From assembly GCA_021234155.1 (NCBI GenBank), contig JAJEKV010000067.1, positions 4,023,279 to 4,087,278 on the forward strand: a DNA stretch of 64,000 nt, given 5' to 3'. The number at the start of each line of letters is the position of its first letter. The first letter of the stretch is position 1. This document shows positions 23,500-64,000 of this stretch, piece by piece. The stretch comes from Isoetes taiwanensis. Lineage: Eukaryota > Streptophyta > Lycopodiopsida > Isoetales > Isoetaceae. The position numbers and the translations under genes are program-made. Below the pieces are notes generated by a model. That model was not told the origin of the DNA and did not search any database. It saw only the letters and a list, made by a program, of their open reading frames with translations.

Positions 23500-23607
23500 G
23501 CGGCATATTTATATTATATCAGTGGCGAAATACAAAATGTGGGCATTGCCCATATACATCCGCTATGGGTTGAGCCCTATTTACAAAATCCTAAATTAAA
23601 CGAACCC

Positions 23608-23870: not shown

Positions 23871-24394
23871 TCGACCACTGCTCGTCTTATATAGCTCAAC
23901 CGCTTGGAGCTCTGTTGACGTGGCCCAATCACAAAATTGCTAATGTGGTTGCAATGCAAGGCCGTTTCTAAATTGGGAATCTTTTCTCCCACCGCATATC
24001 TAGCCATAGTACCTTCTGACATTTTCGTTTTTATGATATCCCACTTCGAGTCGCCAGCATTAAATGATATTCCTTCCTTTCACGCCCGTCAAACATTAAT
24101 ATTTGTACCTTCACCAGCTGTCACCTTCGATCATTCATTCACGTTTCATCTCCACCGTCCGTCGCTTCTCCCTTCAGTGTTTAGGGACTTAGCCAAATTT
24201 TCGCCCCTCAAGTGCCTTCTTCTCATCTACTACCACCTGGCAACATCAACGGTTCCTGTTTCATTCTCCTCACGCCCCTTCTCCAGAACTTGTGCGCCCT
24301 AAAATTTTTTCGTCTATCTTCGTTTTTGTCTTCTGCTCTCCGCCCTCCGGCTTCTTGGATCCGCTCCTCCAGTTACTTCTCGCCACTCTTCGCC
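23871..24394. other. Spacer of the gypsy element
   Basis: T/C-rich DNA leading to the third ORF. The frames here are short and S/F/L-rich. The stretch may hold the leader or promoter for the third ORF or for the antisense ORF. I see no clear element. Confidence 0.3.
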
Positions 24395-42986: not shown

Positions 42987-44839
42987 TCTTATATTATAAA
43001 GTTTTAGCGTATGTCTTGAATCAAACCCTAATTTAGATAGTTGAGATCGTCTGATTGCATTCGAAGGCCGAGATTTATCACACAACTTCCCACCACCGTG
43101 ATTGGCCATGCTCTGATCTCTTAAGAGGAAAGGGAAAATGGCAGAGAAAAGGGCAAAGTGAGGGGAAAAAAGGCACGGGTAAAAGGGAAAGACGGAGAAG
43201 GGAAAAGGAAAGGGAAAAGAGCACGAAAAAAAGGGAAAGAAAAAGAAAGGGAGAAAAAGGAAGGAAAAAAGAACACTATGAAAAGGAAAAGGGGGACAGA
43301 ATAAGGGAAAAGGAAAGGGGAAGGGAGGAAAAGGAAGAAAAATAGGGCAACGGGAAAAAGGTGAAGACGGAAAGGGTGACGGAAGGGAAAAAGGGGAAGA
43401 TAAGAATGATGGAGAGAAGGAAAAAAGGGCATGGAAAAATAGAAAGGGAAGGAAAAAGGAAAAAGGAGGCGAAAAAGGGAAAAGAGCATGAGGAAAAGGG
43501 AGAGGGAAATGAGAGAGGAAGGAGAAAGTGGCACGAGAAGAGGAAAAGGGTGAGGAAGGGAAAAAAAAAGGGAAAAAGAGATGGAAGAAGGGAAAAGGGA
43601 AAAGCAAAAAGAGAACAGAAAACATGGAATAGGAAAAGAGAAAAAGGGAAAAGGGGAAGAGGGTGGGAAAATGAGGAAAAAGGGCATGTGAAAAAGGTGG
43701 AAAAATGGAAATGGAAAAAGGTGTGGGAAAATGGAAAGGAAAAGAGAGGGGAAAAAAAAAGGGTGGAAAGGAAAGAGGAAAAGGGCATGGAAAAAGAGAA
43801 AAGCATGAAAAAAAGAAGGAAAAGGAAAAAGGAAATGGGAGGCGAAAGGGGAAAAGGGAAAGAAAAAAGAACACGAGGAATAAGGAGGGAAAATGGAAAA
43901 GAGGAAGAGAAAAAGAGGCAATGTAAAAAACTGGAAGAGGGAAAGGGGTGAGGAAAGGGTAAAAATAAAAGGAAAAAGAGCATGGGGAAAGGGAAAGAAA
44001 AGAAAAAAAAAGGAATAGGGACGGGAAAGGGGAAGAGGGTAGGAAAGGCGGAAGAAAAGACAAGTAAAAAAAAGTGGAAAAAGGGAATGGAAAAATACAT
44101 GGGAAAAAGGAAAAGGAAAAAAGAAAGGGAAAGGGAAAGGGAAAGAGAAAAGGAAGGGGGAAGGAAAAGAGGAAAAGGGCACGGGAAAAAAGGGAAAGGA
44201 TGGGGAAATGATGAAAAAAGAAGGAAAGGGAAAAAGAAAAAGGGAGGCGGAAAGGGGGAAAGGAAAGGAAAAAAGGCATGAGAAAAAAGGAAGAAGAAAA
44301 TAGGAAAAAAGAGACATGAGATAAAGAAGAAGATGGTGAGGAGAGGAAGAAAAACATAAAAAAAAAGGTGGGGAAAAGGGAATGCAAAAAGGGCATGAGA
44401 AAAGGGAAGGGAAAAGAGAAAAGCAAAAGGAATGCGAAAAGGAAAGGAAAAAAAGAGCATGAGAAAAATGGGAAGGGTGGAGAAAGGTGAAAAGGGAAGG
44501 AAAAAAGCCGTCAAAAAAGGGAAAGGGAAAGGGAAAAATGAGAAGGAGAAAAGGAAGGAAAAGAGTAGGGAGAAGAGGGTAAAAAAGAAAAGAAAAAAAG
44601 AGAGAGAGAGAGAAGGAGAAAAGTAAATGTGCAGGAAAAATAAGAAAAGGGAAAAAAGAAAGTGTGTAAGAAAATGAGGAAAAAAGGATATGCAGGATAG
44701 AGCAAAGGGAAGGTTATCAAATGCACAAAAACCTCTTATAGCCTAGATATGATAGACTTGGTTAATGAGTCTGAGCTGAATAGGTTTCCATCCACAAATG
44801 TTCCCAACATTTGCCCAGCAACGCTGGGCACCATTACTA

Positions 44840-44840
<1 letters not shown>
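42987..44840 (+). mobile_element. Helitron (1854 bp), non-autonomous
   Basis: The 5' end TCTTATATTATAAAG (42987) follows an A. The 3' end is stem GCCCAGC / AAC / GCTGGGC (44813-44829), ACCATTA, CTAG (44837-44840), then T. There is no target duplication; both flanks are TA repeats, consistent with Helitron insertion between A and T. The interior after about 130 bp is a polypurine tract, with no Rep/helicase gene. The 3' hairpin matches the one at 5309 with a compensated G-C to A-T pair, so both belong to the same Helitron family. Confidence 0.75.
43121..44720. repeat. 1.6-kb polypurine/polypyrimidine tract
   Basis: The + strand is almost entirely A and G (GGGAAAAGG, GGAAAAAGG, GAAAGG units). 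Occasional GCA(T/C) and TG interruptions often recur as GGGCA(T/C)G, about 80-120 bp apart. Because stop codons need purines in certain positions, the pyrimidine strand is open in all three frames for 400-480 codons of F/S/P/L. These are compositional artefacts. Confidence 0.95.

Positions 44841-44884
<44 letters not shown>
44841..44884. repeat. (TA)n microsatellite
   Basis: About 22 TA units directly after the Helitron 3' end and directly before the first copy of the 3-kb direct repeat. Confidence 0.95.
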
Positions 44885-44885
<1 letters not shown>

Positions 44886-47800
44886 CCTGAACCTGGCCAA
44901 AAGACCAAGTCCAGACATCTAATCCAGCCAGGGTAAACCCTGGTCCGTCTTAGACTTATCGGCCCCTTTATAAATTCAGGGGAACCTTATAGGCAATACT
45001 GACCTATAGTAAACATATCCCAAGTATATTTTATTTCAATTAAAACTTCTAGCGTATCATATGCACGACCAAGCATTAAGAACAGTTTAATATCCAATAT
45101 CCTTTCACATGTTATTACATTTGCTATCAAATGTTTATTAATGCAACAAGATTTCAGAAATAGTCAAATACATTTGAACTTTTCATTTTCTGCTATTATC
45201 AGTTGACTGCAACACTATCTTATGTCTGATCAATTCTATTTTTTAAGTAAAATGATAAGCCATGGATAACTAAAAAAAGTTTTTTCCATATATTAAGAAA
45301 AGTTAAAGGATAAAATGCAGCCTTTACTAACAGATATGGCTGCACTTGCTGTCATAAAGTGCAGAGAGTTAAAAAACGTAAAATATTACCTTATGCTTCA
45401 TTTTTTTGCTGTAAAAGTTTCAGCTTTTTTGACAACACCACTATGCTGTCTTGCAATGATGATCCCATTGCAATTGTTCTAAAAAAAACAAGAGACATAA
45501 CCTGAATAATTAAAGATAACAGAGTTTCATCCTAAAGTTTTTCCTTTTTACTCCACTTGCAACATCCAAAAGCCTTCCGAGTACATGTATTCTTCTATAT
45601 TCTTTGCAAAAAACAAAGGAGGTAGTAGAGAATCTGGTTACCTGCAGTAGAACCAAAGCAAGTTAGCCTATACAGGGTAAAATGCTAAGCTACTAGCAGG
45701 TAAGCAAAAGATTCTCAAGGCTTAACGCCCTTCAACCATACACCATAAGAACTTTACATAGTAATCAAATCAGAATGTAAGGCTGTAAAAAAGTCAGAAT
45801 TACTTCCTTTTCCTGCTGACATGACTTGTTTAATGCCATAGATGTTAATCTGATTGTATCATTGAACCTTTATGTAGTACCACCCAATTTTACTTTAAGC
45901 TTTGAATCCATGAAAGCTATGTATACCATCCATCTTTCAGACCGAGAGCAGTTCGAAAAGATATAAAGGCAATTTCAAGCCTAAGATATTCCTTATGTAA
46001 CCACATTACTAAAGATAAGTTTCTTACCTTTGTTATCCAGTTATAACCCACAAGCTTCAAAAATCAGGTTCAACCTGATTAGAAAATTAATTTCATATAA
46101 CACTTGCAGCTAGAGGCCAAAAGTCGTTTCTGACTTTCTGTATGAGTTAAAACAATGCCAGCAGCTAACTTAAATCATGGCTATCTTAGCAAAAAAAATT
46201 AGATCTCGTCCCCCTCATAGTCATACTAGAAAACATCAGAGATAGAGTTTAAGACAAATTTTAAAATGCAGACGGATAGCCTAGAGAAGCAATTAAAAGT
46301 GCAGTAACAAATGCTTTTTCCTTTCTACCCATCCCTTGTTTAAGTTACTATGTGAAATTTATTGAAGAAAAACCTGGTTGAGTGGTGTGTCCTCATCTTC
46401 CAGTGCATCCAAATCTGTACCAAGACTAACACGGCTGTTCATTGCTCCAGAACTTGTATCAGCACTATTCCTCCCTTGAATAACCAATTTACAAGCACCA
46501 ATGCTAGAAGCAGGGCGTTTTCCCAAAAGGCTCTTCTTAGCAGCATATATGTCAATTCCAGCTTCCATGGCCATTCCTTCTAGAACAGATTTTTTGATGG
46601 TCGCTCCATCATTCTTGCAGTCAATTCCTTTTTCTTTGAGCATCAGAATGATATCTGCCTTAGTCGGCTTTACATTAGCGCTGCCTTCCGGCCTGGTCAT
46701 TGTATCAGAACTCAGATGTGTGATAGATGCCCTGTTTTCAAACAAGACGCCCTTGCCTTTGTCCGCCTGTAAACCTTCTATCATGCACCAAGAACTCTCA
46801 TCTTCGAATTTTAAATCCCTCAGAAAATCGTTGATAAGATCATCCTCCCATTTATCCTTTCCCATGACTTGAAAAATAAGGATTTCGGCCAGTAATTAAG
46901 AATAGAAAAGGGCGGTAGGAATCTACTGGTATGCAAAAGTTAAATAGAATGTGTGAGCTTATCAGAAATCTTACCATGGTACACCAAAATCTTGTAGAAG
47001 CATGCATCCGTTTGAAATTGTAAAACTTTCTGCTTGTCGTCGGCGCGTCAGTAGTCCTCCATAGCCGTTTTCCTATTTTCAAGTGTAAACCCTAAGGCTG
47101 CTCTACAAGAATGTCTTCTTCGCTAGATGTATATTGGTCAGCTCATTCGTGCGGCGAAAAACCCTCGCTAGGGTTACTACCATTAATGCACCGAAATTAT
47201 TTGGTGGCAAGCCAGTCTAAAGGTTAGCCATCATTACGTCTATCATACTAATATTTATTGTATTTTTATCAGGATAATGTGGCTTTAAAACTTGGTCCAA
47301 AAAAGGAAGTCCAAAGAACTACGTATACTAGGTCCTGTTTAGAGAAAAAGACACTAGTATCCTAAAACCAAATATCATACTGTCTTATATTAATACAAAG
47401 AGTATCATAGAATTTCGTTCAAGCAAAATGTCAAATGTAGTAGACACCAAAATGGTGTTATAGGAAATACTAGGGAAGCATGCTCTCAAGACCTAAAACC
47501 TGTGGTGCCATGGAAGTTTTTGAGACAAATGTCACTTTGCCTAGAATGGACTCCTTGGTCAATCTATTGAGCATATTCGGCATATGCCAAATCCGGGTTA
47601 CTTAGTTATCAATTTTGATCTTCACGGCCCTTGAAAAAATGTCTTAGAAAACTGACTTTATTAACTTATAGTCTTCCTGTCCAAAATAAATCCTGTTATC
47701 TAAAGGGCTTATAAAACAAGCTGCTAATCAGTACTATATGATGTAATTATGGCTCTAAGGTATGCCTGTTATACTCCCCTAAGTATGTGGATGTGGAATA

Positions 47801-47903
47801 GCTCCAAAAAAAACATTTTTTGCGTCAATCTGAAGTAAGTCCTAAAATTATACACGTACAGAGCCTATCAGTGGATATATATGTATATATAGATATATAT
47901 ATG
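44877..47903 (-). repeat. 3-kb direct repeat, copy 1 (left of retroelement A)
   Basis: This stretch matches 52183-55220 almost base for base, at an offset of 7313 in the coding part, with small indels mostly in homopolymers. Left boundary: TATAGCCTGAACCTGGCC next to (TA)n. Right boundary: GATATATATATGTAT next to a short TA run. It carries copy 1 of the SAP-like ORF. On the minus strand it lies downstream of the RT of element A, while copy 2 lies upstream, so together they behave like long terminal or pseudo-terminal repeats. Confidence 0.9.
46374..47062 (-). pseudogene. SAP-like leader ORF, copy 1 (stop in exon 1)
   Basis: Exon 2 (46867-46374) encodes the same protein as copy 2: MGKDKWEDDLINDFLRDLKF, then RPEGSANVKPTKADIILMLK, then TIKKSVLEGMAMEAGID, and an acidic end DALEDEDTPLNQ. 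The frame reads on to a TAA at 46359 if it is not spliced. The helix-turn-helix pair resembles a SAP-type nucleic-acid-binding motif (inference). In exon 1 (47062-46975) the ATG is followed after three codons by TGA, where copy 2 is open, and the next 20 bases also differ. Copy 1 is therefore probably silent unless exon 2 is translated from its own ATG (46865). Confidence 0.6.
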
Positions 47904-48037
47904 TATTTTTATAAAACCTACCTCCTCCCGGGGAGTGAGGCAAGGTCCTAGTATGTATATAGGGATCTGGAGGGGTCCCTATATACATAGGGACCCACCC
48001 CAAACCCTCAGTTTTGATAAACCTAGTTCAGTTCCCA
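47904..48037 (-). other. 3' tail of retroelement A
   Basis: CCTCCTCCCGGGGAG, then AAGGTCC, then GGAGGGGTCCCTATAT and TAGGGACCC lie between the RT stop (48038) and the TA-rich end. The same order of blocks occurs at 57209-57300. The tail contains TATATAGGGA / TCCCTATATA, able to form a hairpin. Conservation in two places marks it as a functional or terminal part of the element. Confidence 0.6.
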
Positions 48038-50161
48038 TTAGCAGTAATCAGACCTAAACATAAACGTGTAGAAATATGAAACATACCTGTACTTCTTTAG
48101 TTCATTCAACATTACTCCAATGTCATACTGTACACCAGGGAATTCCGTGTCTTTGAACGCCTTGTATAGAGATTTCCATACGTCCTTTCCTTTAAAACCT
48201 TTCTGTATAAAAATCTGGACCAGTGAATTTAAATCCTCTGCTGCGAGCAGTGGGTTGCTATGCACATAAATATATGGCATAACTTGAGACATTATTACAT
48301 TACAAGCTAGAAGGTACGGTCTACATCCAATAGCGTGTATGAACTTGGTTGCTGGAAATGGCAGCTTGTCCCTTTTGTCGTATCTATACGTACAGTAGAT
48401 ACCTTGTTCTTTGTGAAGGACCTCAATCGTCATGTTAAGGAAATTGACCTTCCTGTCACTGTGAGACGATTCCCCATTGCAGGGCCAGTATTCTGTCTCG
48501 TCCTTAATTTTGAGGATTTCTAAATCATAGATGCTTTCCTTTGCAATTTCATTATCAGCCAAACCAAGGTATTCCCTTATATATGGGCAGTTGATACTAA
48601 TAAGATCGTCCATATATCTGTGTGTATTACTGAAAGATGCAGCTTCAACCATTTTATTGTCAATGGCAAGTCTCATGATAAACTTGAGTTCTAACATGGC
48701 TAGATACAGGTTACACCATGCAGGACTACATGGAAAGCCCATGGGTATGCCCTTAACTTGTTTCCAAATACCTAGTCCCATGCTAAGGTAGCAGTTATTT
48801 ATCAGCCACTTATTAATAGTACAGAACCATTGCAGATCCAGCAGTGTCCATTTTTCACCCTTTGGCGCGATCTTCTTCCATTTAGCCTCTGCTTCCCCAT
48901 TACATGTGAAACAGAACCATAATTTAAAATTAGCGTTCTGCTGTCTTTGACTCCTCCAGGCTAGATCACAAACTTCATTCATGATTTGTACTATCCCTAT
49001 ACTTCCATTAAGTGGAATATTTTCATAACACTTTGTGATGTCACAAACAAACAGGTCATCAATTTTGCTCGGCAGGTTACATATCAAGTCATAGATGGAG
49101 TTAATCACCCAAGAAGCTTTAATTTTATGTTTACTAAAGAGATTGAACTTGGCACACTTCTCATGGCAAATTCTGGGCCACATTTCCAGAATAGAGTTTA
49201 GAACGACTGCTGTTAAAGATGCTAAACTGGAAAATATGGAGTTATGTGCATTCGTAATCCATCTATACTCTCTCTTATGTGCCTTATATATCCCCAAGAG
49301 GTATGGCAATTCCTTGCCTTCAGAGTTCCTATGATTCAGCAGTTTTCTGATATCATTCTCGATCCGTGTAGTCACCATCTCAAGACTTAAATCAATCCTA
49401 TCGAAATCTGCACTGTTAAGTCTGTTATAGGCCTCATTACTGATGTGTAACGGACAAATGAAAGATACATTGTTAGCTGCCTTATCAATTCCTGCCATGT
49501 AGAAATTCTCTAAAAGCCATTTCATATTCTTTTGCAAGTCTGGATCTTTAATCAAAAACTTGCTTTCTTTTCCATCATAGTTAGTAAAAAACTCTTTAGC
49601 CAACTGTTTAGCCTTCTTCAGAATATCAAGCTTACATTTCCCCACTTTATCCCTTTCATTCTCATAAAAAGAGAAGTGGTGTAAATTGAAGAATTGTTCT
49701 ATTGTAATGCTTAACTCCTTTTTAAACTGTTGTAAAGTAAAAGGCTGGTCTGGAATGTGGTTTAGGCCCATGCTAAACCAATTTCTAAGCCCCTCATGAT
49801 GGACAATGCTTAAATCCGTTGTGCGTATATGACCAATATCCTGGTCTACATACTGCTGCAGAGTTGGATTTTTGCAGGGGCACTTCTTAACCCCATCTTG
49901 TGCAAAAATATTCCTAGGTCTATAGAACATAGCCTTAAGATTTTTGATGTATCTCCAGCCAAATATAGTATTATCATAGATTTCTAGGCCCTTATTTCCG
50001 AAGGTTTTAACCAACTGTTCCTTGAAGATGCATTTAAACTTGACCTTACTCACGAGCTTAGAGAAGAAATTGAAATGTATAAATTTCTTTCTCTTCTTAT
50101 CCTTAACCAGTTTAATGGTCCAGTCACCATCCTCATTTAGCACCATGCTTCTGGTACAGAT
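48038..50161 (-). CDS. Reverse transcriptase, ORF2 of retroelement A
   Basis: A 702-aa protein from ATG 50146; the frame is open upstream to an acceptor-like TTACAG at 50162. The N-terminal half has CPCKNPTLQQYVD followed by GHIRTTDLSIVHHEGLRNWF, then LPYLLGIYKAHKREYRWITN. RT motifs follow: FVCDITKCYENIPLNG (A, catalytic Asp), KQVKGIPMGFPCSPAWCNLY (B), THRYMDDLISIN (C, YMDD), KVNFLNMTIEV (D) and YRYDKRDKLPFP (E). A C-terminal helical region reaches LNELKKY. I see no RNase H, integrase or GIY-YIG endonuclease. The PK(L/Y)HK-type block and the DLSI/LR box resemble RTs of Penelope-like type rather than LTR or LINE RTs. The frame is intact. Cellular role: copying its own RNA, by inference. Confidence 0.8.
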   Translation of the reverse strand: MCTRSMVLNEDGDWTIKLVKDKKRKKFIHFNFFSKLVSKVKFKCIFKEQLVKTFGNKGLEIYDNTIFGWRYIKNLKAMFYRPRNIFAQDGVKKCPCKNPTLQQYVDQDIGHIRTTDLSIVHHEGLRNWFSMGLNHIPDQPFTLQQFKKELSITIEQFFNLHHFSFYENERDKVGKCKLDILKKAKQLAKEFFTNYDGKESKFLIKDPDLQKNMKWLLENFYMAGIDKAANNVSFICPLHISNEAYNRLNSADFDRIDLSLEMVTTRIENDIRKLLNHRNSEGKELPYLLGIYKAHKREYRWITNAHNSIFSSLASLTAVVLNSILEMWPRICHEKCAKFNLFSKHKIKASWVINSIYDLICNLPSKIDDLFVCDITKCYENIPLNGSIGIVQIMNEVCDLAWRSQRQQNANFKLWFCFTCNGEAEAKWKKIAPKGEKWTLLDLQWFCTINKWLINNCYLSMGLGIWKQVKGIPMGFPCSPAWCNLYLAMLELKFIMRLAIDNKMVEAASFSNTHRYMDDLISINCPYIREYLGLADNEIAKESIYDLEILKIKDETEYWPCNGESSHSDRKVNFLNMTIEVLHKEQGIYCTYRYDKRDKLPFPATKFIHAIGCRPYLLACNVIMSQVMPYIYVHSNPLLAAEDLNSLVQIFIQKGFKGKDVWKSLYKAFKDTEFPGVQYDIGVMLNELKKYRYVSYFYTFMFRSDYC

Positions 50162-50384
50162 CTGTAATGTTTAGTCGGGATTGATACTAGTCAATCAAAA
50201 TGTCATGTAATGCCTTAGTAGGCATTGAAACTGTTACGTGTTTTTTATTTACCCCGTGCATCCCCTAATATGTCTACATCCACTATGCAACATAATTTAA
50301 TCATATCCACACAAATTAAGTATTGTTTACACATAGAAGGTACTTGCAAAAAATGTATTCATAGACTAACATACCTTAGCTCTT

Positions 50385-52010
50385 TCATATGTTTAGATTA
50401 CAAGGATGTATGTTGTACGACCTCCTCGGAGCATTGTTACCTCCAGCTGCAGGGTTTACATTGCCATTATTGTCGTCAAGATCAACTATGTCACTGTCAT
50501 TGTTGCGCCCCGTACTAGAGTTGACCGAATCAGGCCGTATGTACAGCCTAGGTGGCATAACTATGGAACAATCCGGACTGTCAGGATCACTACTCCTTCT
50601 CCTGTTGCTTATTGTTTGGCTGCTTCCTGCCAGCTCCTGTTGTTTGCCCATCAAGAACTTTAAAGGTTTGACTGTTTTTTCCAGGATATCAGTCAATTTT
50701 GTGTCACCAAATTCTTTATTTAGGTCACAATTGGGATCCTCCGAAAACTTAATGGCCATTTTTATCAGCAAATCTCTAACCCTGAGATATCCAATCAGAG
50801 CAATTATTGCATTCTGCAGGGGTTTGGTAGACAAAACTGAGCAGAAAAAACCAAACCTAACAACCGCTGGATACATTGGCCATGCCATTTCCAGGTTATT
50901 CATGAGAAACCATATAGCATGATCAAGCCATATAATTGTGTCCGGGCAATCCCCATTTTCCTTAGCAATTTTACCACAAGTGCATTTGATGAAGGGGCAG
51001 AAGGTCCTCCACATTTTCTTAATATAAAAATCATGCCTTCTTTCGTCAATCCTTGCCTGGTGGCTTTTCTGCCCAATCACTATTGTCTTACTATTGCTGC
51101 ATTCTAGACCAAGACATTTGGCTGCAAATGGTAGTGTAACTTCAATTCTCTCAACACTTCTAAAGCAGCTGTCAACCTCATTGCAGGTCCTTCTTAGATC
51201 AGTCTCGTTGATACTTGCCAACATTTTCCAAGCTTCCAGACCAATAGGTGCCAGTATGCCTAAATTTTTGCTCTTCCAAAGTGCTTGTTTGAACTGTGCT
51301 CCATGTGATTCAACTTCCCTCTGCGTCATGATGGGGAACCTACCGCAATTAAAGAAGTTAAGCATAGCAATGGGTACTTTGTCATCCTCCTCATCCGTAT
51401 TATCAAGGCTGTCACTGTTTTCACTGTCACTTTTTGGATTAAATGCAGTCTTGTATTCATCGGGCAGCATGTCAATGCTAAACAGACAGTTGGTGGCCAA
51501 AGTATTAGGGACCATTTTCACTTGAGTGTTGCTGGTACGAGTCCTTGTTCTTCTATTATTGTTGACAGGGAATGTATACTTGACACCATTAGCCCTTTCC
51601 AAAGCAGTCAGTACTTTAACAAAGGTTTTCAGATTGGCAGTTTCTTTTTCGGTAGCCTTGAACAATGTCAGGGGTAGTCTTGCATACTTTTGCTCAATCA
51701 AACTCTTGCACACTTCTATATCATATTCCGCCTTCCCAAAACTAGCAACTAATGATAGGAAACTGCTCATACCCATATGGCTGATTGCTGAGTGATCACT
51801 ATTGGCTATTGTCCTTTCCAGGTTGATAATATATTCATGTAGTTCTTCTCTCAGAATACATGCTATAACAGTTTGCACAGCATAATTTGGTGCAGGTCTG
51901 CCTGTGGCTTGATATCCATGTGTTATCAAATCCCCGCTCCATACGATTTGAGTTGTCATAAGACTGCTACTTGCCGTATTACCAACGTTTGGAGTGTTTA
52001 CAGCAGCTTC
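50385..52010 (-). CDS. Uncharacterised protein, ORF1 of retroelement A
   Basis: An open frame of 541 codons from a splice-acceptor-like TTTACGTAG|GAAGC at 52010 (first internal ATG at 51959, 524 aa). I do not recognise the family. Conserved with copy B are LNFFNCGRFPIMTQREVESH, FKQALWKSKNLGILAPIG, GQKSHQARIDERRHDFYIKK and a Cys/Asp/His cluster (WRTFCPFIKCTCG, then CPDTIIWLDHAIW), with IALIGYLRVRDLLIKMA near the end. The Cys cluster could bind a metal. A poorly conserved acidic, N/S-rich tail ends at TGA 50387-50385. ORF2 follows 224 bp downstream on the same strand. The acceptor is in phase with the donor at the end of the SAP-like exon (53687), so ORF1 may be the C-terminal part of a larger spliced protein. 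Confidence 0.65.
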   Translation of the reverse strand, partial: EAAVNTPNVGNTASSSLMTTQIVWSGDLITHGYQATGRPAPNYAVQTVIACILREELHEYIINLERTIANSDHSAISHMGMSSFLSLVASFGKAEYDIEVCKSLIEQKYARLPLTLFKATEKETANLKTFVKVLTALERANGVKYTFPVNNNRRTRTRTSNTQVKMVPNTLATNCLFSIDMLPDEYKTAFNPKSDSENSDSLDNTDEEDDKVPIAMLNFFNCGRFPIMTQREVESHGAQFKQALWKSKNLGILAPIGLEAWKMLASINETDLRRTCNEVDSCFRSVERIEVTLPFAAKCLGLECSNSKTIVIGQKSHQARIDERRHDFYIKKMWRTFCPFIKCTCGKIAKENGDCPDTIIWLDHAIWFLMNNLEMAWPMYPAVVRFGFFCSVLSTKPLQNAIIALIGYLRVRDLLIKMAIKFSEDPNCDLNKEFGDTKLTDILEKTVKPLKFLMGKQQELAGSSQTISNRRRSSDPDSPDCSIVMPPRLYIRPDSVNSSTGRNNDSDIVDLDDNNGNVNPAAGGNNAPRRSYNIHPCNLNI

Positions 52011-52182
52011 CTACGTAAATACCAACTTAGAATAGTCAGATCTCGCTGTTTTTAAAGAGCATCATGCATACCACATATCATAACTAGAATAACAGTAACT
52101 CTTAGGAATATAGAACTACATGTAAGTATCACCCATAAGATCCGCACTGGTTAAACCAGTACCACGAAATCACGGAATATAT
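52011..52182 (-). promoter_or_regulatory. Intron end with conserved hairpin upstream of ORF1
   Basis: On the minus strand ACTGGTTTAACCAGT (about 52148-52162) is a perfect palindromic hairpin lying 140-150 bp before the ORF1 acceptor. Copy B has ACTGGTTTTACCGGT at about 62932-62947, in the same position and with the same flanking blocks (GTG.GG, TATATA.AGCCT). Pairing is kept through a G-T pair, so the fold seems to be under selection or is very recent. Confidence 0.45.
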
Positions 52183-55373
<3,191 letters not shown>

Positions 55374-55509
55374 TTTCCTTTGCCTAGGGTCTAATCTAGC
55401 CTATTTAATGTCCTATTTAAGGTCCTATTTAATCAGAAATTAATGCTAAGGTGTAGTGGGGCACCTAGCATTTCTGCTAGGACCCTACTGCACCCATATA
55501 GTTTTTATT

Positions 55510-55659
55510 CTATTCTACAAAATAGCTTAATTCAATCAATTGTGCCTTAGTAGGCTGAGGATTATTGTGCTCTAAGCCATTCCTTCTGAGGAACTCAATA
55601 AGTTTAGCCCTGGTTTGCCCCTTATTGCACGCACCCTCTGGTCGGCCAGCCTTACTCAT
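55510..55659 (-). CDS. Small SAP-like ORF (49 aa), relative of the leader ORF
   Basis: The minus strand encodes a 49-residue ORF: it starts MSKAGRPEGACNKG, continues with helix 1 TRAKLIEFLRRNGL and ends with helix 2 TKAQLIELSYFVE. The RPEG-x-x-N box and the two-helix layout match the central part of the 168-aa leader ORF (RPEGSANVKPTKADIILMLK). It stands between two (TA)n runs, downstream of retroelement B, the position that direct-repeat copy 1 holds relative to element A. It is probably the leader of the B-type element. It is short, so chance similarity cannot be excluded. Confidence 0.5.
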   Translation of the reverse strand: MSKAGRPEGACNKGQTRAKLIEFLRRNGLEHNNPQPTKAQLIELSYFVE

Positions 55660-56374
55660 GTCTCAGGTGTAATTTGAGGAATACGAACATATTAAATAGC
55701 CCAGGGTTTAACCCGAATTCAACTCCAACCAAGCTTAATCTGCTATAAGTTAAAATTACAAGAAGTTTAAGGAAAAAGTTCCTAACTGTTTACCTGTCTT
55801 GATCAATCCGACCTGTCCTGTAGATCATTTGCATGCAAATGCATCGTCGTAGGGGACACGCCATCCCTAATCAGTTAGGGATCCGTCAACAAAAGGCAGA
55901 TCAGAGCAGCTGTAGACAATGCCCTTCATTAGGGTTTGTTAACATTTTAGGGTTGGCTTACGATTTGGTCGTTCCTAGCTGGAAATGTTAGGAATAAAAA
56001 ATAATTTAACCTTGGACGTAATTGAGACAATAGCCACTAAATTAAAAAAAGTGCTACCCACATGTTAATATACCATTATGCCCTTATATCTAGGGCCAAA
56101 ATTCATAACAAAACCATAACAGCATACTTCCCATTTTCTCTAGTGATTGAAAACATGTCTACCCCAAGCAATTTTTACCACCATTAGGCAGAAATATCTT
56201 AAATTTTAAACCATCAATAACATGCCCATGAAAACCAGGGTATATGATTCGAACTCAAAGCATTGTAGAATGATTTGATAAATAATTCAGTAATTATTTA
56301 AATGTTAGGGAGAGAAAACTAACCTTTACATAGAATTACTGTCACATCCAGGACCAATACCATTACTGTTTAAT
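55660..56374. other. Non-coding, possible B-type terminal region
   Basis: AT-rich, no gene. Two small inverted phrases stand out: CATTTGCATGCAAATG (55827-55842, a perfect 16-bp palindrome) and CCCTAATCAGTTAGGG (55865-55880). Both lie about 200 bp upstream of the 49-aa ORF on its strand and could be regulatory. Confidence 0.45.
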
Positions 56375-56930
56375 CTATGGGTTAACCTATTATTTCAAGA
56401 GAACAAGTTAATGATAACAACATGTTTGCAATGTCCAAAACCCTAAATATACAATGATCATCTTATCTTAAACCATTGTTGGTTAATGTTTGGGTAAACA
56501 AGTTAATGACACCAACATGTTAACATATGTTAACACATGTTGATGTTATACCTGTAAATGCTTGGGCCATAGAGATACCCTGATCCCCTTATCTTATCAA
56601 GGCAATTTCGCTTATTTGGTCAAGGCCATTGTTGGATATGTATGAAAAAATTCAAACAATTGTTGGTTAATGCCTGGGTTAACAAGTTAATGATAATAAC
56701 ATGTTGCAATGTCCAAAGCCCTAGAGTTACAATGATCCTCTTATCATATCTAGGCAAATTAGCCTATTTGGTCAAGGCCATTATTGGATATGTATGAAAA
56801 GACTTAAAATATTGTTGGTTAATGCTTGGGTTAACCAATTTCAAGAGAACAAGTTAGTGACCACAATATGTTACAATGTCCAGAGTCCCAGAGATACAAT
56901 GATCCCCTTATCTTAAACCATGTACCCCCA
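56375..56930. repeat. Tandem repeats, unit about 130-190 bp, four copies
   Basis: The sentence GGTTAA(C/T)..., ACAAGTTAATGA..ACAACATG, TTGCAATGTCCAAA.CCCTA, ACAATGATC..CTTATCT, GTCAAGGCCATT.TTGGATAT occurs at about 56385, 56485-56640 (partial), 56670 and 56820, with moderate divergence. An internal ACATGTTAACATATGTTAAC run lies at about 56515. Confidence 0.75.
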
Positions 56931-57065
56931 ACATATTAATTTACCTGTCCTATACAGGTCCATGTAATTTGTCCATAGACCACCATTGATACTTAGAACA
57001 TAAAAACAACAGGATTATAGGATAAGAATTAATCCATAGAGGGAACTAATGCTAATGAATAGAGT

Positions 57066-57310
<245 letters not shown>

Positions 57311-57820
57311 GTCCTTAAGGGACTATTATAAACACAAAGAGTTAGTTGAGGCCATAAGGAATTGTGTCAAATATTGTGTCAAATATTGAATTTATAAAAT
57401 TATATGAAATGGCTAAGGAAAATAGTGATAATATATACCCAATAATTTTGGATCCAAAATCATTAAAAAAGGAAAAAAAGTATATACCCCATTTTATTCG
57501 AGTCCAAAATAATTAGCGTGAGCTATTCCCCTAGGTATGTCTTGATTAACAAAGAGCTACTCTTCTAGGCATGTCATAATTAGAGTAGTCAAATCATAAA
57601 TTACGCGGCTTAAATACTTTATGGTGTTTCCCGGCCGGAGCCACACTTCCATATTCCAGATGATAGTCATTCCATATTCCCAAATTATGGCGACAAGATT
57701 TCTCGTAGATGTCAAGTTCGGTCATCTACCGGTGGGCTAAAAGTTTTTGGCCGATTCATAATATCTTAGGATGCTACATGGATCAGATTTCGATTCATAA
57801 CACAATCAAGCTTTTCGTAG
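57311..57820. other. Upstream region of the B3 gene
   Basis: AT-rich. ATGGCGACAAGATTTCTCGT at 57687 opens a short frame (MATRFLVDVKFGHLPV) that could be a first exon ending at a GT (57734), to be joined to the acceptor TTTTCGTAG at 57820. The phase is plausible but unproven. Confidence 0.3.
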
Positions 57821-58580
57821 GAAGCGAAGGGTGATACTTGCCAAAGATCAATACATTGTAGGCATAGGCCCAAATCGAAAGGAGTATTCTATTTATATAG
57901 CATCTGTGGGTGGGCGAACTTTCTTCACTGAAGGCTGGGAGTCCTTTTTGCAAGGAAATAACATGGTGGAAGGAACTGCAGTTTTATGCAGTATATCAGA
58001 CAATGGAACTCGCATAACAGCACAGATATGTGATGGAAATTACCGTGTGACACCAATAGGCAACTGGCAACTTGGAAACTCCAGTCATAGTGCGCCACCA
58101 AAAAATCGGCGTGGTACTAGTGATCGGCATGGTGTTAAAGATCCACCCAAATACAATGATCTTGATTCATCGGACGATGATACTTCAGATGAGGATGAAC
58201 CCCCAACCCAGAAACCTTTTCGAGTCGCTCTACTCAGAGCAAACATAAATAGAGGCCTGGTAAGTTTATGTTCTTTTACTCCAAGCATTATTATAAGGTT
58301 CTTTAACATTCTTTATTGTCTGTTTGATTAGGTACTTGAGAATGAGAACAAGTGGCGTAGTCCACCTAAGGGCTACACTGTAGTCATCACTGGACCTGGG
58401 AATCAGAAGAGCTCGCTGTCAGCAAAGAGGAGCAGAAACTGCCTAGGTGATGGCTGGACTGGTTTTAAGAAGCTTTATGGTTTAAGCCTTGGAGACATTC
58501 TTGAGTTTTCTTATAATGGTAACAAGCTTGAATGGAACATGAAGATTTTGAAAGGTGCTGCACTGCACAGAGTTAGGTGA
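57821..58580 (+). CDS. B3-domain protein, at least two exons
   Basis: From an acceptor TTTTCGTAG|G the frame reads KRRVILAKDQ, then SIYIASVGGRTFFTEGWESF and MVEGTAVLCSI, the second half of a plant B3 DNA-binding domain. A Ser/Asp-rich linker follows (DLDSSDDDTSDEDEP). Exon end at 58259 (CCTG|GTAAGT), intron 58260-58331, next exon 58332-58580 in phase. That exon ends in a second B3-like half (RNCLGDGWTGFKKLYGLSLG, then DILEFSYNG) and a TGA. B3 proteins of the REM type bind DNA in the plant nucleus. The start exon is not certain (see 57687). It runs opposite to retroelement B and lies inside or beside its 3' region. Confidence 0.75.
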
Positions 58581-59061
58581 AACTGGGTTTAACTTCTGTC
58601 ATTTACATCAAAAATGGAGTATGAACTTTAGTAATATAATGTATAGTTACCATATAGTAAGATTTTTTGTCTATGTGCCAATTAACTGTAACAATTGGCT
58701 TCAAAATTATGTTGTCCTTACCAACTTTATATCTAAATATGTATGTTGCCTTGCAACAATACTTTACTTAATCCAAATTTCAAAGGCATAGCTTTTATCA
58801 ATTGTATTAAATAAGGTTGTTTCTGATATCTTAAGTCCATACAGTTTGTATCAGAGAATATAAAAATACAGTGCAGACAATAACAAGAGTATTTATTTAT
58901 CTCAGAGTAGGGTCCAACCCTAACATAAAGACTGCATCAGATATCATTAAAATATAGTGCAAACAATGCCAATAGAATTTATTACTATCAGAGAGGGTTA
59001 AAAACCTAAAGATAAAGATGAAGATGGGGTTTCTGTAGTTGGGATCCCCTTGCCAAAAACT
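58581..59061. other. Spacer between the B3 gene and the RT of element B
   Basis: AT-rich, no gene. A phrase TAT.AGAGA.....AAATA.AGTGCA.ACAAT.. is repeated twice (about 58850 and 58935), a small local duplication. It includes the 3' UTRs of the two convergent transcription units. Confidence 0.4.
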
Positions 59062-61130
59062 TTATATTAACTTGAAATTATTCAACTCAAAGATCAATGT
59101 CTTGATATCATATTTAAGTCCTGGAAACTCTTCCTTATTCAAAACTTTGAGTACCTTATGCCAAACATCATTTTTACCAAAACCTTTGCTGACAAAGCAA
59201 TTAATGAGGTCCACTAGATCTGCAGCAGCTCTTATAGGATTATTATGAACATAAAGAATAGGTTGGACCTGTGATATGATCACATTGCAAGCCATAATAT
59301 ATGGTCTCCGGCTACTAGCATGAATAAATCTTGAAGCCACAAATGGTAACTTATTTCTCTTATCGAATCAGATATATTATATATACCAAAGATGGTGCTT
59401 GCTTATTTCAATAGACATGTTAAGAAAATCCACCTTAGTGCCAACAGATGTTGCTCGGTCAGTGTATGTGGTTTCATCCTTAATAATAAGATGATCCAAG
59501 TCATAAATGCTTGGGCTGCAGTCATTGTTGTCTAAACATAGAAACTTTCTGATAAATGGATTATTGATACTCAATAAATCATCAATGTATCTATATGTAA
59601 ACTTGAAGGCAGCTGCCTCAACTAGTTTACCACCAGAAATAAGTTTGCGAGATAAACTTCAGCTCATACGCAACCCGATATACAAGTTGCACCAGCCCGG
59701 TGGAAGCAAAACCCATTGGGATACCCTTGACTGTTTGAATACTCCATTATGCATTACTAGGAAACAATTATTTAATAGCCGTTATTCAATTGAATAAACA
59801 AAGATTTATCCATCTTTTTCCATATTCTACTTTCAGGAGCTGTTTTCTTCCATTCCATTGTGATCTTTCCATCTGCTAAGATTTTATACCACATGTTAAA
59901 ACTAGAGCGTCCTTTCTTTTTGAAATTCCAGGCCATACTGATAATATTTTCCATAACACTGCAAATACCATGTTCACCATTCAGTGGTATGTTTTCATAA
60001 CATTTGGTTATATCCGCGACAAACACACTGCTTATTTTGGCAGGTAGATTACAAACAACATCATAAGTGGAATTGACAATCCAAGCTGCTTTGATATTAT
60101 CCTTTTGAAAGATATTAGCTGCACTGCATTTTTCGTGACAAATATTGGGCCATATATCCAATATGAGATTAAGACCAGCTGCCACAATTGAGGCAGGAAT
60201 AGAGAAGATTGTTTCATGTGCATTGGTGATCCACCTGTACTCAAACTTATGTGCTTTGAAAATCCCCAGAAGGTAAGGGAATTCAGTGCTAAAAATGTGT
60301 TCATCTCCAAGAAGATTTTCAATATCTCTTCGAATCTGTAATATAAGATCTTCCCTAACAATTGGGCAATTCTTGAAATCATTACTTCTTAGTCTATTAT
60401 CTGCCTCATTTCTAATATGAAATGGACATATAAAGACCGGGTTATTAGCTGCTTTGTCTACCCCAGAGACATATATGTTGCTGATCAACCATTCCATATT
60501 TCTGACTACTGCATCATCCATAATTAAGAATTTTTTCCTGGATTTAATATTAGTATCAACAAAGATCTTGGCAAGCTGCTCAACACCTTTAAAAATATCG
60601 ATCTTGCATTGTTCAATGATAAGATCATCATATTCCATAAGAGAAAATCTGTGCACTTGAAAGAATTGTTCAATAGTAGTCCCCATTTCAGACAAATATT
60701 CTTCAATGGTAAAAGGATGGTCAGGGATAAAATTAAGACCAAAAGCAAACCAGTTCCTTAATCCTTTGGAGTGGATAATATTCAAGTCAGTAGTACGAAT
60801 GTGACCAATTCTTGGATCAATAAATTTCTGTAGTCTTGGAATATTACAAACACACTGAGGCTGTTCAGTACTAGTAAAGACAATTTTGGGTTTATAGAAG
60901 ATATCCTTAAGATTATTTGTATATCTCCATCCAAAAACTGTGTTTTCCCAAATATCATTCCCTATATTTCCCAAAACTTTGTTTAGGACATTTTTGAAAA
61001 CACTGGTATATGCAATCTTGTCAACAGCTTTAGAAAAATATGTTAAATGTACATATTTTCTGCTAGTTTTTTCCTTGATGACTTGTAATTTAAGTCTACC
61101 ATCAACTCTGCGACACAAAATTCTTCTTTT
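59062..61130 (-). pseudogene. Reverse transcriptase, ORF2 of retroelement B, broken
   Basis: Homologous to ORF2 of A over its whole length. The N-terminal 448 codons (61118-59772) are open: GHIRTTDLNIIHSKGLRNWF, LPYLLGIFKAHKFEYRWITN, VFVADITKCYENIPLNGEHG (motif A). Then frameshifts and a stop break motif B (59640-59740). Motif C reads RYIDDLLSINN (about 59560-59590), against YMDD in A. A stop near 59389 precedes the C-terminal block RFIHASSRRPYIMACNVIIS. The frame reads open upstream of 61118 to an acceptor-like TTAACAG at 61131, exactly where A has one. Identity to A is roughly 45-50% by eye, so B is a separate subfamily, not a recent duplicate. Confidence 0.8.
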
Positions 61131-61297
61131 CTGTTAAGTCACAGAAAAGTATTTCAGATATTATATTTGAAAAATGGGGATAAAACCCATATGTATTAGG
61201 CATAAAAGCCTGAGTTACATGCTATGCATGCACAGTAAGTCATACAAAAAAGCATACTAAGTCCGAGGATAAGGTAAGGCAAAAATACCTCTCATCC

Positions 61298-62805
61298 TTA
61301 AAAACTAATATTTGTAGTAGTAGATGTACCTGTAACAGCATTTTTCATGAGCTTGGGTGGCCTTATGATTCCTGTAACTGTAAGCTGTGCCGGCTGGTTT
61401 CTCTTTTTAGCTTGGGCATACCCAAAGCTGTTATTGTCATGCAAGTGATCTAGTAAAAACTTTTTTTCTTTGATAGTTTTTTCAATGATATCAACCATTC
61501 TGTGATTGCCAAATTCCTGTTTGAAATTGGTATTGCTATTTTCAGCAAGCTTATGAGTCATCTTAAACATGAGTTCACGAACCTTTAGATAGCCAATGTA
61601 TGCCAGCACTACCTTTTTGATTGGGTCAGAAGCTAACCATCTGCACATGAAAGCAAATCTCATTTGTACTACCTGCTCAGGCCATACTTTCTCCAAGTGG
61701 TTGAACATAAACCATACAATATGGTCAAACCATATGATGTTATCTGGACATTTCTCATCAGTAACCTGTTCACAATTGCACTTGAAGTAAGGACAGAAAG
61801 TTCTCCAAATACGTTTAAGATAAAAGTCGATTCTCCTTTCATCAGTCTTGGCCATATGGCCCTTTTGTCCAATGTAAAGGGCAGTACCAATTAGACATTT
61901 CTTTTCAAGAAGTTCAATCTTGAATGGCAGTTCAATAGTGATTTTTCTGATATGTTTGTTGAAAGCCATAGCATCTTTTTCAGCTTTGGATACTTCCTCT
62001 GGAGTTAACCGAGCCAACATTATGAATGAGTCCTTACTAATAGGAGCAGTTACGCCAAGATTTTTGCTTTTCCAAAGGATTTGCTGGAATTGATCTCCAT
62101 GCATTTCAATATTTCTGTTTGACATAATTGGAAAGCTGCCACAGTTGAACAGATTAAGCTCCTTAAGGCTGTACTTGTCCAATTCCTCCCTTAACTTATC
62201 CTCAGTAGAACTTTCACTGATAGTATCCAGAACAGGTGTAACCAAATGGTTATTATCCAAATCATCGATATCAAAAAGACAATTATTCAAAGATACTTCC
62301 ACCTCATCAATTTTATCTTCAATAATCTGAGCAGCTTTACCAATAGGGGTGTAAGTGTACCTCAGTGAATTCTGTTTTTCCAAGGCAGTTAACCCTTTGA
62401 TGAAGGCTAGTAAGTCATGCATATCCTTACTATCAGCATTAATGTGAGCACTAGGTAGTGCTTTGTAAGTATCAATAATCAGATCATGACATTTCCCATA
62501 ATCAGCATCTTTGAATTTTGAAACCAGTCCCAGCATATTATTAAAGCCAAGAAAAAGAACTGCAGATAGCTCACCTTCAGCCAGTGTGCTTTCCTTACAT
62601 ATCAGTAGATTATGTACCTCAGAAAGCCTAATGCATGACATAACAGCTTGTTGTTAGGAGCCATAATACCAGCAGTAGCATAACCCAACTTAGCAAACTC
62701 GGGGAGCCATTCGGGCCTTCCCTCAACATGATTCTGGTGATTAGTTTGCAGAATATGATCAGACTGATTACCACATCCAGCAGAATACTTGTGATTGTTT
62801 GCTTC
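61298..62805 (-). pseudogene. ORF1 of retroelement B, one frameshift
   Basis: Homologous to ORF1 of A. From the acceptor GCTTATAG|GAAGC (62805) it opens with EANNHKY and reaches GYATAGIMAPN. A one-base shift near 62650 moves to the frame of the remaining 447 codons (62641-61298). Conserved blocks are LNLFNCGSFPIMSNRNIEMH, QILWKSKNLGVTAPIS, GQKGHMAKTDERRIDFYLKR, the Cys cluster WRTFCPYFKCNCE and CPDNIIWFDHIVW, and LAYIGYLKVRELMFKM. A donor-like ACAG|GTACAT lies at 61330-61329. Conservation of these blocks at about 45% identity implies selection on the protein before decay. Confidence 0.7.
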
Positions 62806-64000
62806 CTATAAGCAAAATTAAAATAATAAGTCCAACCTATAAGTCAACTGAAAAATTATAGAAAACCTATAGAAAGTCTATAGTAAGTCTATAGTAGGTC
62901 TATAGTAGGTCCCAAGGATCTCTAAAGCCCACACCGGTAAAACCAGTGATCCAAAGTGGGGTAATATATAAACTAGCCTAGCCGAAACCTTAAGTTACAA
63001 CCAGACATCCAAGAAGCCCTAGACTAACTAATTAGGACAACTGGATTTATTGGATCCTAAACAGGAAAGCCTTAGAGATCATGGGACCATCATAAAATAC
63101 CTTAAAACTGTGATGTAAAAATACAACTCAGATTATCCTAACCCAGTAAAAATGATTTATGTATTAATTGTAACAAAACCATGTCACAGCAATGCTGAGT
63201 TTATTTAAAATACACTCATAAAGCAAGTCTTAAAAAAAATAGGCTAAGCAAATGAAACTAAGTTAAGTTGTAACATTCAAACATATAGTAGACAGCTAAA
63301 TGAATAAACCATTTTATTTCAGAGTAAAACAAAATGTTATTATGCTTTATCAATAAAAGCAATCAATAAGGCATAAAAATGCTTTAATAGTAACAGCATA
63401 ATAATTCTGCAATGTATAACATGAGTCAACAAAAGCTTAAGAAATGTACCCTGATATTATCCCAGCTCGAATCCATATTAGCACAAGAATAAGAGTAAAA
63501 TCTTACCAAAGAGTATTGATTAAAAACAAAAGGAATAAGTAGTTCATTTAATCCAAAAGCATTCTTCAAGCACCCATGCACAAAGCAAAATGCGTGAGAA
63601 GAGAGCTCTCTACACTGCAAAGAAATAGCATTAATTAGCCAAAAGAGGGTAAAAACACTAATGCTAACAGTAAGCAATGAACTCTCTTGGCATTTCTGCC
63701 CTTTACCCGATTTAAAGGAGATATTCACAATTTACATATAGACAAAAGTTACCGAGGTTAGCAAAGACATTCAACCTGAAAATAACTAAAATCTGCGGAC
63801 ATAAACTAGGAACAATGTTACATTAGATGATAGAAACAATCTGGCTTTGAGAGAACATTGGATCAAGGCTAATTTTAGAGAAGATCGGTGAAATAAACCT
63901 ACATCAATGTTAGAAGGGAGCAAAGAAGACTAAACCAAGCACCTAGTCATTTAGGATAATTATACTTTATCCAAATCTAATGTCTAAAAAATTACGGACA
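62806..64000 (-). other. 5' region of retroelement B, cut by the window edge
   Basis: Short blocks match the start of direct-repeat copy 2 upstream of A: CACACCGGTAAAACCAGT, AATATATAAACTAGCC, CCAGACATCCAAGAAG. GTCTATAGTA(A/G) is repeated four times at 62873-62912. A minus frame at 63426-63728 (100 aa, with CRELSSHAFCFVHGCLK) shows no recognisable domain. A leader exon for B would be expected here or beyond the edge, but I cannot see one. Confidence 0.45.

What the first reader, a model, noticed from the sequence alone, without database searches (positions are those of the whole stretch)
47904..62805. Undescribed two-protein retroelement family, apparently Penelope-like, in a plant genome
Seen: two diverged copies (A intact, B broken) keep the same order on the minus strand, an unknown 540-aa protein followed by a roughly 700-aa RT with motifs A, B (GIPMG..CSP), C (YMDD or YIDD), D and E. 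There is no integrase, RNase H, GIY-YIG or LINE endonuclease. Known: Penelope-like elements can keep introns, carry pseudo-LTRs, and some lack the endonuclease. Inferred: this is a Penelope-related or wholly separate RT lineage with a novel partner protein.
Basis: partly seen in the sequence, partly recalled or inferred. Interest (0 to 1): 0.87.

Follow-up and report, generated by a model that had tools for sequence, protein, structure and literature searches.

The report
Penelope-like retroelement family in a quillwort
A large family of copy-and-paste DNA elements in what is probably a quillwort genome makes a reverse transcriptase that folds most like telomerase, has no recognised cutting enzyme, sits between 3-kb repeats that hold a third protein and a folded RNA, and lies in TA-rich DNA, which makes it a good test case for how Penelope-type elements move.

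Summary
Copy A is intact; copy B has a frame change in its RT. Both keep the order ORF1 (541-codon frame) then RT (~700 aa), and 47 of 63 listed RT matches in the genome have an ORF1 match 231-881 bp upstream. The host is probably Isoetes taiwanensis (assembly size). R pairs are 95-98% alike within seven copies; most other copies match copy A's R at 68-85%. All nine 3' ends examined are TA-rich. The RT's predicted fold has telomerase at PDB ranks 1-8 (marginal E-values). No GIY-YIG, integrase or RNase H was found in the ORFs scanned. Best reading: an endonuclease-deficient, Penelope-like (PLE) element with pseudo-LTRs that primes on TA-rich ends. Endonuclease-deficient PLEs are already known, also in Selaginella and conifers, so this is a new variant of a known kind. 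PLE membership by tree was not testable; mechanism and RNA function are inferred.

The parts
44885..47905 (-). Copy A, 3' terminal repeat (R); ends at the R/(TA)n boundary
   Evidence: 97.5% identical to the upstream R over 3.06 kb; homologous R in other copies
44841..44884 (.). (TA)n tract at the 3' end of copy A
   Evidence: read from sequence; (TA)8+ at 7 of 9 3' ends, a shorter TA run at the eighth, a TA palindrome at the truncated ninth
45619..45738 (-). Conserved structured RNA, predicted three-way junction, in the 3' R
   Evidence: covariation, covariance model
46359..46865 (-). ORF0 in the 3' R, 168 aa from ATG
   Evidence: open frame; 150 matches listed, the cap of the scoring; dN/dS 0.18-0.22 in 4 comparisons
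47906..48037 (-). 3' end of the internal region: hairpins and a purine-rich GGGAGGAGGTAGG stretch just before R
   Evidence: read from sequence; similar in other copies
48038..50146 (-). RT, 702 aa, copy A; conserved part ends at ..LKKYRY with an AG^GTATGT donor-like site
   Evidence: fold search
50209..50226 (-). Small conserved hairpin (AATGCC..GGCATT) in the ORF1-RT spacer
   Evidence: 6 pairs in 22 sequences, one pair with a double change in 3 of them; position computed
50388..52010 (-). ORF1, 541-codon open frame starting at a TAG^GA splice-acceptor-like site; no conserved initiator Met
52146..52160 (-). Hairpin ACTGGTTTAACCAGT just inside the 5' end of the internal region, similar in the copies printed
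   Evidence: read from sequence
52178..52187 (-). TATA-box-like (TA) run at the R/internal junction
   Evidence: sequence
52188..55222 (-). Copy A, 5' terminal repeat (R)
52928..53050 (-). Conserved structured RNA in the 5' R
   Evidence: cmsearch E 2.1e-22
53672..54178 (-). ORF0 in the 5' R, protein identical to the 3' copy
55223..55376 (.). (TA)n between the 3' end of copy B and the 5' R of copy A (head-to-tail)
55380..57060 (-). Copy B, presumed 3' R-like region (1.7 kb, no ORF0 or RNA match)
   Evidence: position between (TA)n tracts; not shown to be a repeat, B's upstream R lies largely outside the window
57831..58577 (+). Antisense B3-domain-like gene in two exons (57831-58259, 58332-58577) inside copy B, probably captured
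   Evidence: Pfam B3 E 3.6e-4 and 2.5e-4, both below the cut-off
59053..61133 (-). Copy B RT, broken by a frame change near 59780
61298..62650 (-). Copy B ORF1, 37-41% identical to three other copies tested
63592..63709 (-). Structured RNA upstream of copy B, not used to build the model
   Evidence: cmsearch E 3e-10

Best explanation
This is an endonuclease-deficient, Penelope-like retroelement family with pseudo-LTRs. One unit is internal region (ORF1, RT) plus a 2.6-3.3 kb repeat R (ORF0, structured RNA, TATA-like run at its end), and a genomic copy is R-internal-R. Shown: the architecture in the copies compared, conservation of the three proteins, a covarying RNA, near-identical R pairs within copies, and TA-rich junctions. 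Inferred: a transcript that holds at least one whole R is translated into an ORF0-ORF1 protein (joined by splicing) and the RT. The RT, related to telomerase, binds the three-way-junction RNA in its own transcript, as telomerase binds its RNA. Since no element nuclease is recognised, the complex uses a 3' end at a broken or extruded (TA)n tract or TA palindrome as primer. The TA-rich end of R pairs with it and is copied. Synthesis runs through R, internal region and R, and the TA-rich start of R joins the other side of the TA tract by microhomology. The transcript may come from tandem copies, as proposed for a Poseidon PLE (PMC11167929). Introns survive because an unspliced template is copied.
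For: Telomerase RT fills ranks 1-8 of the PDB fold search (ranks 1-6, human, probability 0.96-1.00; ranks 7-8, 0.25 and 0.20). The nearest of 121 GIY-YIG matches to a listed copy on the same contig is 83 kb away. R pairs: 97.5, 98.2, 97.8, 98.2, 95.2, 98.2 and 95.5% in the 7 copies compared, against 68-85% for the longer R matches of most other copies to copy A. R starts at the same TA-rich point in 6 of 7 copies. 3' ends: (TA)8+ tracts at 7 of 9, a shorter TA run at C930, a TA palindrome at truncated C1064; 0.057% of 105,451 background bases lie within 10 nt of the start of a (TA)8+ tract. RNA: 92.7% of cells paired, 152 double-change cells against 51.1 in shuffles, 0 of 500 shuffles as high. 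Literature: pLTRs from tandem copies, a TATA box in a pLTR, AT-rich homing, priming of EN-deficient PLEs at chromosome ends or breaks (PMC3846280 passages; PMC11167929 abstract, passages and second part of the main text).
Against: The RT model is only moderately confident (pLDDT 63.8) and no fold match reaches E <= 0.001; the rows after telomerase are mostly viral RNA polymerases and unrelated proteins. Sequence profiles found no solved RT. No PLE sequence was at hand for a tree. No hammerhead ribozyme was found, and no telomeric repeats in the window or nine R regions, unlike described telomeric EN-deficient PLEs. Near-identical R pairs with a fixed start in 6 of 7 copies also fit true LTRs. 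One other R (C1056) is 92% identical to copy A's over its whole length, with a 560-bp piece at 98%, so identity between copies is not always low. PMC3846280 states that protist and fungal EN-deficient PLEs do not share the pLTR organisation. The (TA)n tracts may be expansions of the element's own TA end. The RNA model gave no match in 4 of 20 sources nor in copy B's 3' region. The structure counted was derived from the same alignment, and related sequences can exceed the shuffles.
Confidence: 0.62

Rival explanations
1. A true LTR-type retroelement: R is a long terminal repeat made by strand transfers, and integration uses a factor in trans.
For: R pairs nearly identical within the 7 copies compared; fixed 5' start of R in 6 of 7; purine-rich stretch just before the 3' R.
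Against: No RNase H, integrase or aspartic protease matched in the ORFs scanned; no constant TGG primer site after R in the copies printed (it differs in L019 and L020); the RT fold is nearest telomerase, with no retroviral RT in the 50 of 125 rows shown.
Confidence: 0.15
2. A new RT lineage beside both PLEs and telomerase, with its own partner proteins.
For: ORF1 and ORF0 match no Pfam family above noise, and ORF1 no solved structure by sequence or by a low-confidence model; no relatives in one scan of genome contigs and three of viral contigs, collections of prokaryotes and viruses; the RNA matches no Rfam family at gathering score.
Against: Pseudo-LTRs, TATA-like run in the repeat, tandem copies, AT-rich sites and likely introns all fit PLEs; EN-deficient PLEs are known in a lycophyte.
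Confidence: 0.15
3. Copies are amplified mainly as DNA (tandem duplication or circles) and the R-internal-R form is a by-product of unequal crossing-over between (TA)n tracts.
For: Tandem copies exist (C1079, C1018; A and B head-to-tail in the window); recombination between TA tracts would give direct repeats.
Against: The 82 ORF1 matches lie on 53 contigs, with different flanks and the same ends in the copies read; all three proteins are under purifying selection.
Confidence: 0.05
4. A DIRS-like element that integrates a circle with a tyrosine recombinase.
For: Direct repeats, a second long protein of unknown fold, and no target duplication seen by eye at the one TA-palindrome site studied.
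Against: No tyrosine recombinase match; a weak Flp_N hit in 2 of 25 ORF1 members at best E 0.15 is at noise level; no RNase H matched.
Confidence: 0.03

Closest known systems
Endonuclease-deficient Penelope-like elements (Athena, Coprina; Selaginella and conifer EN(-)PLEs)
   Same: RT without GIY-YIG; two ORFs in those lacking EN (PMC6431247 passage); present in Selaginella and conifers (PMC9033089 passages); priming at exposed DNA ends proposed (PMC3846280 passage).
   Different: Here: 2.6-3.3 kb terminal repeats with a third ORF, TA-rich sites, and no telomeric repeats in the sequences tested. Homology of ORF1 or RT was not testable; the 2007 paper on them is not held.
Canonical Penelope/Poseidon elements (GIY-YIG PLEs)
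   Same: Pseudo-LTRs from tandem units, TATA box in a pLTR, AT-rich targets, intron retention (PMC3846280 passages; PMC11167929 passages and second part of the main text).
   Different: No GIY-YIG domain; no hammerhead ribozyme found; repeats more than ten times longer than the 218-bp pLTR cited there.
Telomerase reverse transcriptase (TERT)
   Same: Nearest fold in the PDB.
   Different: Multicopy mobile family; the genome's two telomerase RNA-binding-domain matches are other loci.
LTR retrotransposons
   Same: Long terminal direct repeats, nearly identical within a copy.
   Different: No integrase, RNase H or constant primer binding site found.

Membership tests
Penelope-like elements in general | RT falls in the PLE clade, sister to telomerase | not testable with these tools
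   No PLE sequences in the available collections; scans of viral contigs and genome contigs gave no relatives
Penelope-like elements in general | Telomerase-like RT fold | tested here: inconclusive
   TERT in ranks 1-8, but best E 1.1e-3 and model pLDDT 63.8
Penelope-like elements in general | Pseudo-LTR / partial tandem organisation | tested here: met
   R-internal-R in the 7 copies chosen for comparison; tandem copies
Penelope-like elements in general | AT-rich targets | tested here: met
   TA-rich 3' junctions at 9 of 9 ends read; one site in dispersed repeats with a TA palindrome, intact in 4 of 7 relatives fetched. Whether all TA preceded insertion is open
Penelope-like elements in general | Introns kept in genomic copies | tested here: inconclusive
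   Conserved splice-like borders of ORF0, ORF1 and RT; no RNA data
Canonical GIY-YIG PLEs (Penelope/Poseidon) | GIY-YIG endonuclease in or beside the RT ORF | tested here: not met
   Pfam none; nearest of 121 listed genome matches is 83 kb from a listed copy
Canonical GIY-YIG PLEs (Penelope/Poseidon) | Hammerhead ribozyme in the pLTR | tested here: not met
   No Rfam hammerhead match at E <= 5 in 44000-64000, nor at E <= 10 in the RNA block
Telomeric EN-deficient PLEs (Athena/Coprina) | Two ORFs, no endonuclease | tested here: met
   47 of 63 listed RT matches have an ORF1 match upstream; no nuclease domain matched; a third ORF is present too
Telomeric EN-deficient PLEs (Athena/Coprina) | Association with telomeric repeats | tested here: not met
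   No TTTAGGG/TTAGGG arrays in the window or nine R regions; other copies not read
LTR retrotransposons | Integrase and RNase H with tRNA-primed LTRs | tested here: not met
   No such Pfam match in the ORFs scanned; no constant TGG after R in the copies printed

The most novel reading that the evidence does not exclude
The element carries its own telomerase-RNA-like scaffold. A telomerase-related RT binds a covarying three-way-junction RNA inside its terminal repeats, which replaces the hammerhead of other PLEs (or is itself an undescribed self-cleaving RNA), and the complex extends 3' ends at TA-rich breaks, a mobile counterpart of telomerase acting inside chromosomes rather than at their ends.
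Probability: 0.25. Interest if true: 0.85.

Novelty: new variant of a known kind. Interest (0 to 1): 0.6.

Why it matters
How Penelope-like elements move is poorly known (PMC11167929 says so in its abstract). Here is a multicopy family with many open copies, clear ends, a defined class of sites, a strongly covarying RNA and no recognised nuclease. That makes testable how an RT of the telomerase side can insert without its own endonuclease, what the pseudo-LTR is for, and whether such RTs use a bound structured RNA as telomerase does. It also adds an element type to lycophyte genome annotation.

Tried and rejected
Rejected on the way: (1) that the 3-kb repeats are multi-kb target duplications (note), rejected because R is homologous between copies. 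(2) That the upstream R is a randomly 5'-truncated tandem copy (note), rejected because 6 of 7 copies start at the same point; only C1034 starts inside R. (3) That GIY-YIG loci would give canonical PLE references: the two fetched (L044, L045) show small GIY-YIG frames without a PLE-type RT beside them, judged by eye from the ORF lists. (4) Telomeric location: no telomeric repeats found. (5) Direct RT-ORF0 fusion by splicing: the phases as read by eye do not match; splicing ORF0 to ORF1 fits in phase. (6) ORF1 fold: model pLDDT 50, no match. (7) Viral fold library: nothing below E 0.14.
Full report
Place. The window is C1075:4023279-4087278 of a genome of 1,658,258,908 bases in 1110 contigs. 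The published Isoetes taiwanensis assembly is 1658.30 Mb in 204 scaffolds plus 909 contigs (PMC8566536, passages). I take the host to be this quillwort; that is inference from size, not a sequence test.

The observation. Copy A has ORF1 (50388-52010, 541 codons) and RT (48038-50146, 702 aa) on the minus strand. Copy B has the same order, with ORF1 open from 62650 and RT matches in two frames that change near 59780. ORF1 matches no Pfam family above noise. The RT of all 15 members aligned matches RVT_1 at E <= 1, copy A below Pfam's cut-off. The Asp of motif A (D369) and the DD of motif C (D513, D514) are invariant in 15 of 15 (motif names recalled).

Family. Own-genome searches listed 82 ORF1 matches, 63 RT matches and 150 ORF0 matches (150 of 309 candidates scored), all lower bounds. 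47 of the 63 RT matches have an ORF1 match 231-881 bp upstream on the same strand; the other 16 have none in the list, which holds only the best 82 ORF1 matches. Selection is purifying: dN/dS of copy A against three copies is 0.07-0.11 for ORF1, against two copies 0.07-0.14 for the RT, and against four copies 0.18-0.22 for ORF0; dS was saturated in the other 2 of 5 ORF1 and 3 of 5 RT comparisons. 121 GIY-YIG matches were listed (150 of 263 candidates scored), and the nearest to any listed copy is 83 kb away.

Terminal repeats. Copy A lies between 3-kb direct repeats, R. R is part of the family: it is homologous upstream of ORF1 in other copies and flanks their ORF1-RT pairs. In the 7 copies whose repeats I compared, the pairs are 95.2-98.2% identical. 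The longer R matches of other copies to copy A are 80-85% (C1034) or 68-75% (most others); one R at C1056 is 92%, with a 560-bp piece at 98%. In 6 of 7 copies the upstream R begins at the same TA-rich point; C1034 begins about 370 nt inside. Tandem arrays occur, and in the window A follows B head-to-tail across a (TA)n tract.

Third protein and splicing. Each R of copy A has a 168-aa ORF (ORF0). ORF0 was found in 8 of 9 R regions, not in copy B's. In 8 of 8 of these the conserved part ends at PLNQ with CAG^GTT, a donor-like site in phase 0. In most complete frames ORF1 begins at an acceptor-like AG^GA site, and it has no conserved start Met. The RT ends in 15 of 15 members at ..RY, with a donor-like GTAT in 13 of 15. 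I infer an ORF0-ORF1 fusion by splicing and a further exon after the RT; there are no RNA data.

Structured RNA. R contains a ~120-nt block that folds into a long arm, a small GGC/GCC hairpin and a closing helix, a three-way junction. On 20 sequences aligned without structure, 97.3% of cells pair and 15 of 35 pairs have double changes. On 31 sequences, 92.7% of cells pair and 22 of 41 pairs have double changes, 3 of 4 in the closing helix; 152 double-change cells compare with 51.1 in shuffles, 0 of 500 as high, and sliding the partners drops pairing to 29-47%. Further pair types are less striking (53 against 46.5, 7 of 500 shuffles as high). The structure came from the same alignment, so this is not a clean test. 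A better one: a model built from 19 sequences found the RNA upstream of copy B (E 3e-10), which was not in the model, and in distant copies L067-L070 (E 8.5e-18 to 7.7e-21). It matched 16 of 20 sources (17 matches); L016, L017, L026 and L029 gave none, and 4 of the 16 (L039, L062, L063, L064) are partner repeats of training copies. In the window it also gave two weak matches (E 0.06 and 0.93), taken as chance. 28 loci without R gave 0 matches at E <= 1. No Rfam family reaches its gathering score in 44000-64000 (10 weaker matches, none a hammerhead) or in the block (3 weaker matches). An array at C1028 (L071) repeats R-like units about 4.1 kb apart with the RNA and partial ORF0; in the 6.4 kb read there is no ORF1 match of note, only a 31-residue remnant of this RT's C-terminus (E 0.006), and a frame of another RT kind (RVT_1, below cut-off). 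These are probably non-autonomous relatives. A small hairpin between ORF1 and RT is also conserved, with one compensated pair of six.

Ends and sites. Of 9 3' ends, 7 carry a (TA)8+ tract (20-192 nt), C930 a shorter TA run, and C1064 lacks about 70 nt and ends at a TA palindrome. 0.057% of 105,451 background bases lie within 10 nt of the start of such a tract; the element's own TA end may seed the tract, so this is not a clean probability. The flanks of C1064 belong to dispersed foldback repeats. Of 7 relatives fetched, 4 are uninterrupted and have a TA palindrome at that point (L077, L078, L082, L083); 3 (L079-L081) break off there into other sequence. No telomeric repeats were seen in the window or nine R regions.

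RT relation. The AlphaFold2 model (pLDDT 63.8) has telomerase RT at ranks 1-8 in the PDB, E 1.1e-3 to 0.38; rank 18 is a telomerase RNA-binding domain (E 1.9). The 50 of 125 rows shown hold no LINE, retroviral or group II RT; the rest are mostly viral RNA polymerases and unrelated proteins. Sequence profiles did not find any solved RT. This favours the telomerase/PLE side but is marginal.

Known work. PLEs have one ORF with RT and EN, or two ORFs without EN, typically 4-6 kb (PMC6431247 passages); EN-deficient PLEs are listed for Selaginella and conifers (PMC9033089 passages; PMC12477314 passages for Selaginella). PLEs have pLTRs, in one case with a TATA box, partial tandems, intron retention and AT-rich homing (PMC3846280 passages; PMC11167929 abstract, passages and second part of the main text). 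Three papers I wanted are not held: Craig 2021, Lin 2016, Gladyshev and Arkhipova 2007. I found no report of this family in Isoetes (searches; two genome papers with no mention of Penelope in the main text).

Verdict. An endonuclease-deficient, Penelope-like retroelement family of a new variant: pseudo-LTR organisation with long repeats, a third protein, a strongly conserved RNA and TA-rich sites. It works like a PLE on this evidence; it is not filed as a canonical PLE (no GIY-YIG) or as a telomeric Athena/Coprina element (no telomeric repeats found). Clade membership remains to be tested.

Noticed in passing
window 57831-58577 (+): Two exons with sub-threshold B3 DNA-binding-domain matches lie antisense inside copy B between the RT and its R-like region; probably a captured host gene.
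   Followed up: partly
window 57169-57325 (+): Rfam reports Alfamo_CPB (alfalfa mosaic virus coat-protein-binding RNA) at E 7.7e-5 but far below gathering (30.9 against 70 bits), across a (TA)n tract and the hairpins at the end of copy B's internal region.
   Followed up: no
L071 (C1028:17149800-17156200): Array of R-like units about 4.1 kb apart with the structured RNA, partial ORF0 and only a short RT remnant; probably non-autonomous derivatives. A 144-aa frame at 131-565 (-) is an RT fragment of another kind.
   Followed up: partly
L044, L045 and 121 matches genome-wide: The genome has over 100 small GIY-YIG frames; the two loci fetched have no PLE-type RT beside them. Their host element is unknown.
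   Followed up: partly
L077, L078, L082, L083: Dispersed foldback repeats with a central TA palindrome; repeats of this kind flank the C1064 copy.
   Followed up: partly
window 16827-25756 (+): Open frames that read like a Gypsy-type LTR retrotransposon, judged by eye from the ORF list.
   Followed up: no
window 36562-37539 (-) and 34564-35262 (-): A protein-kinase-like fragment (Pfam PK_Tyr_Ser-Thr above cut-off) and a protein with a weak RING match.
   Followed up: no
3' flanks of C930, C1075 (second copy) and C963: At 3 of 9 3' ends the (TA)n tract is followed by CAAG, possibly part of a preferred target palindrome.
   Followed up: no
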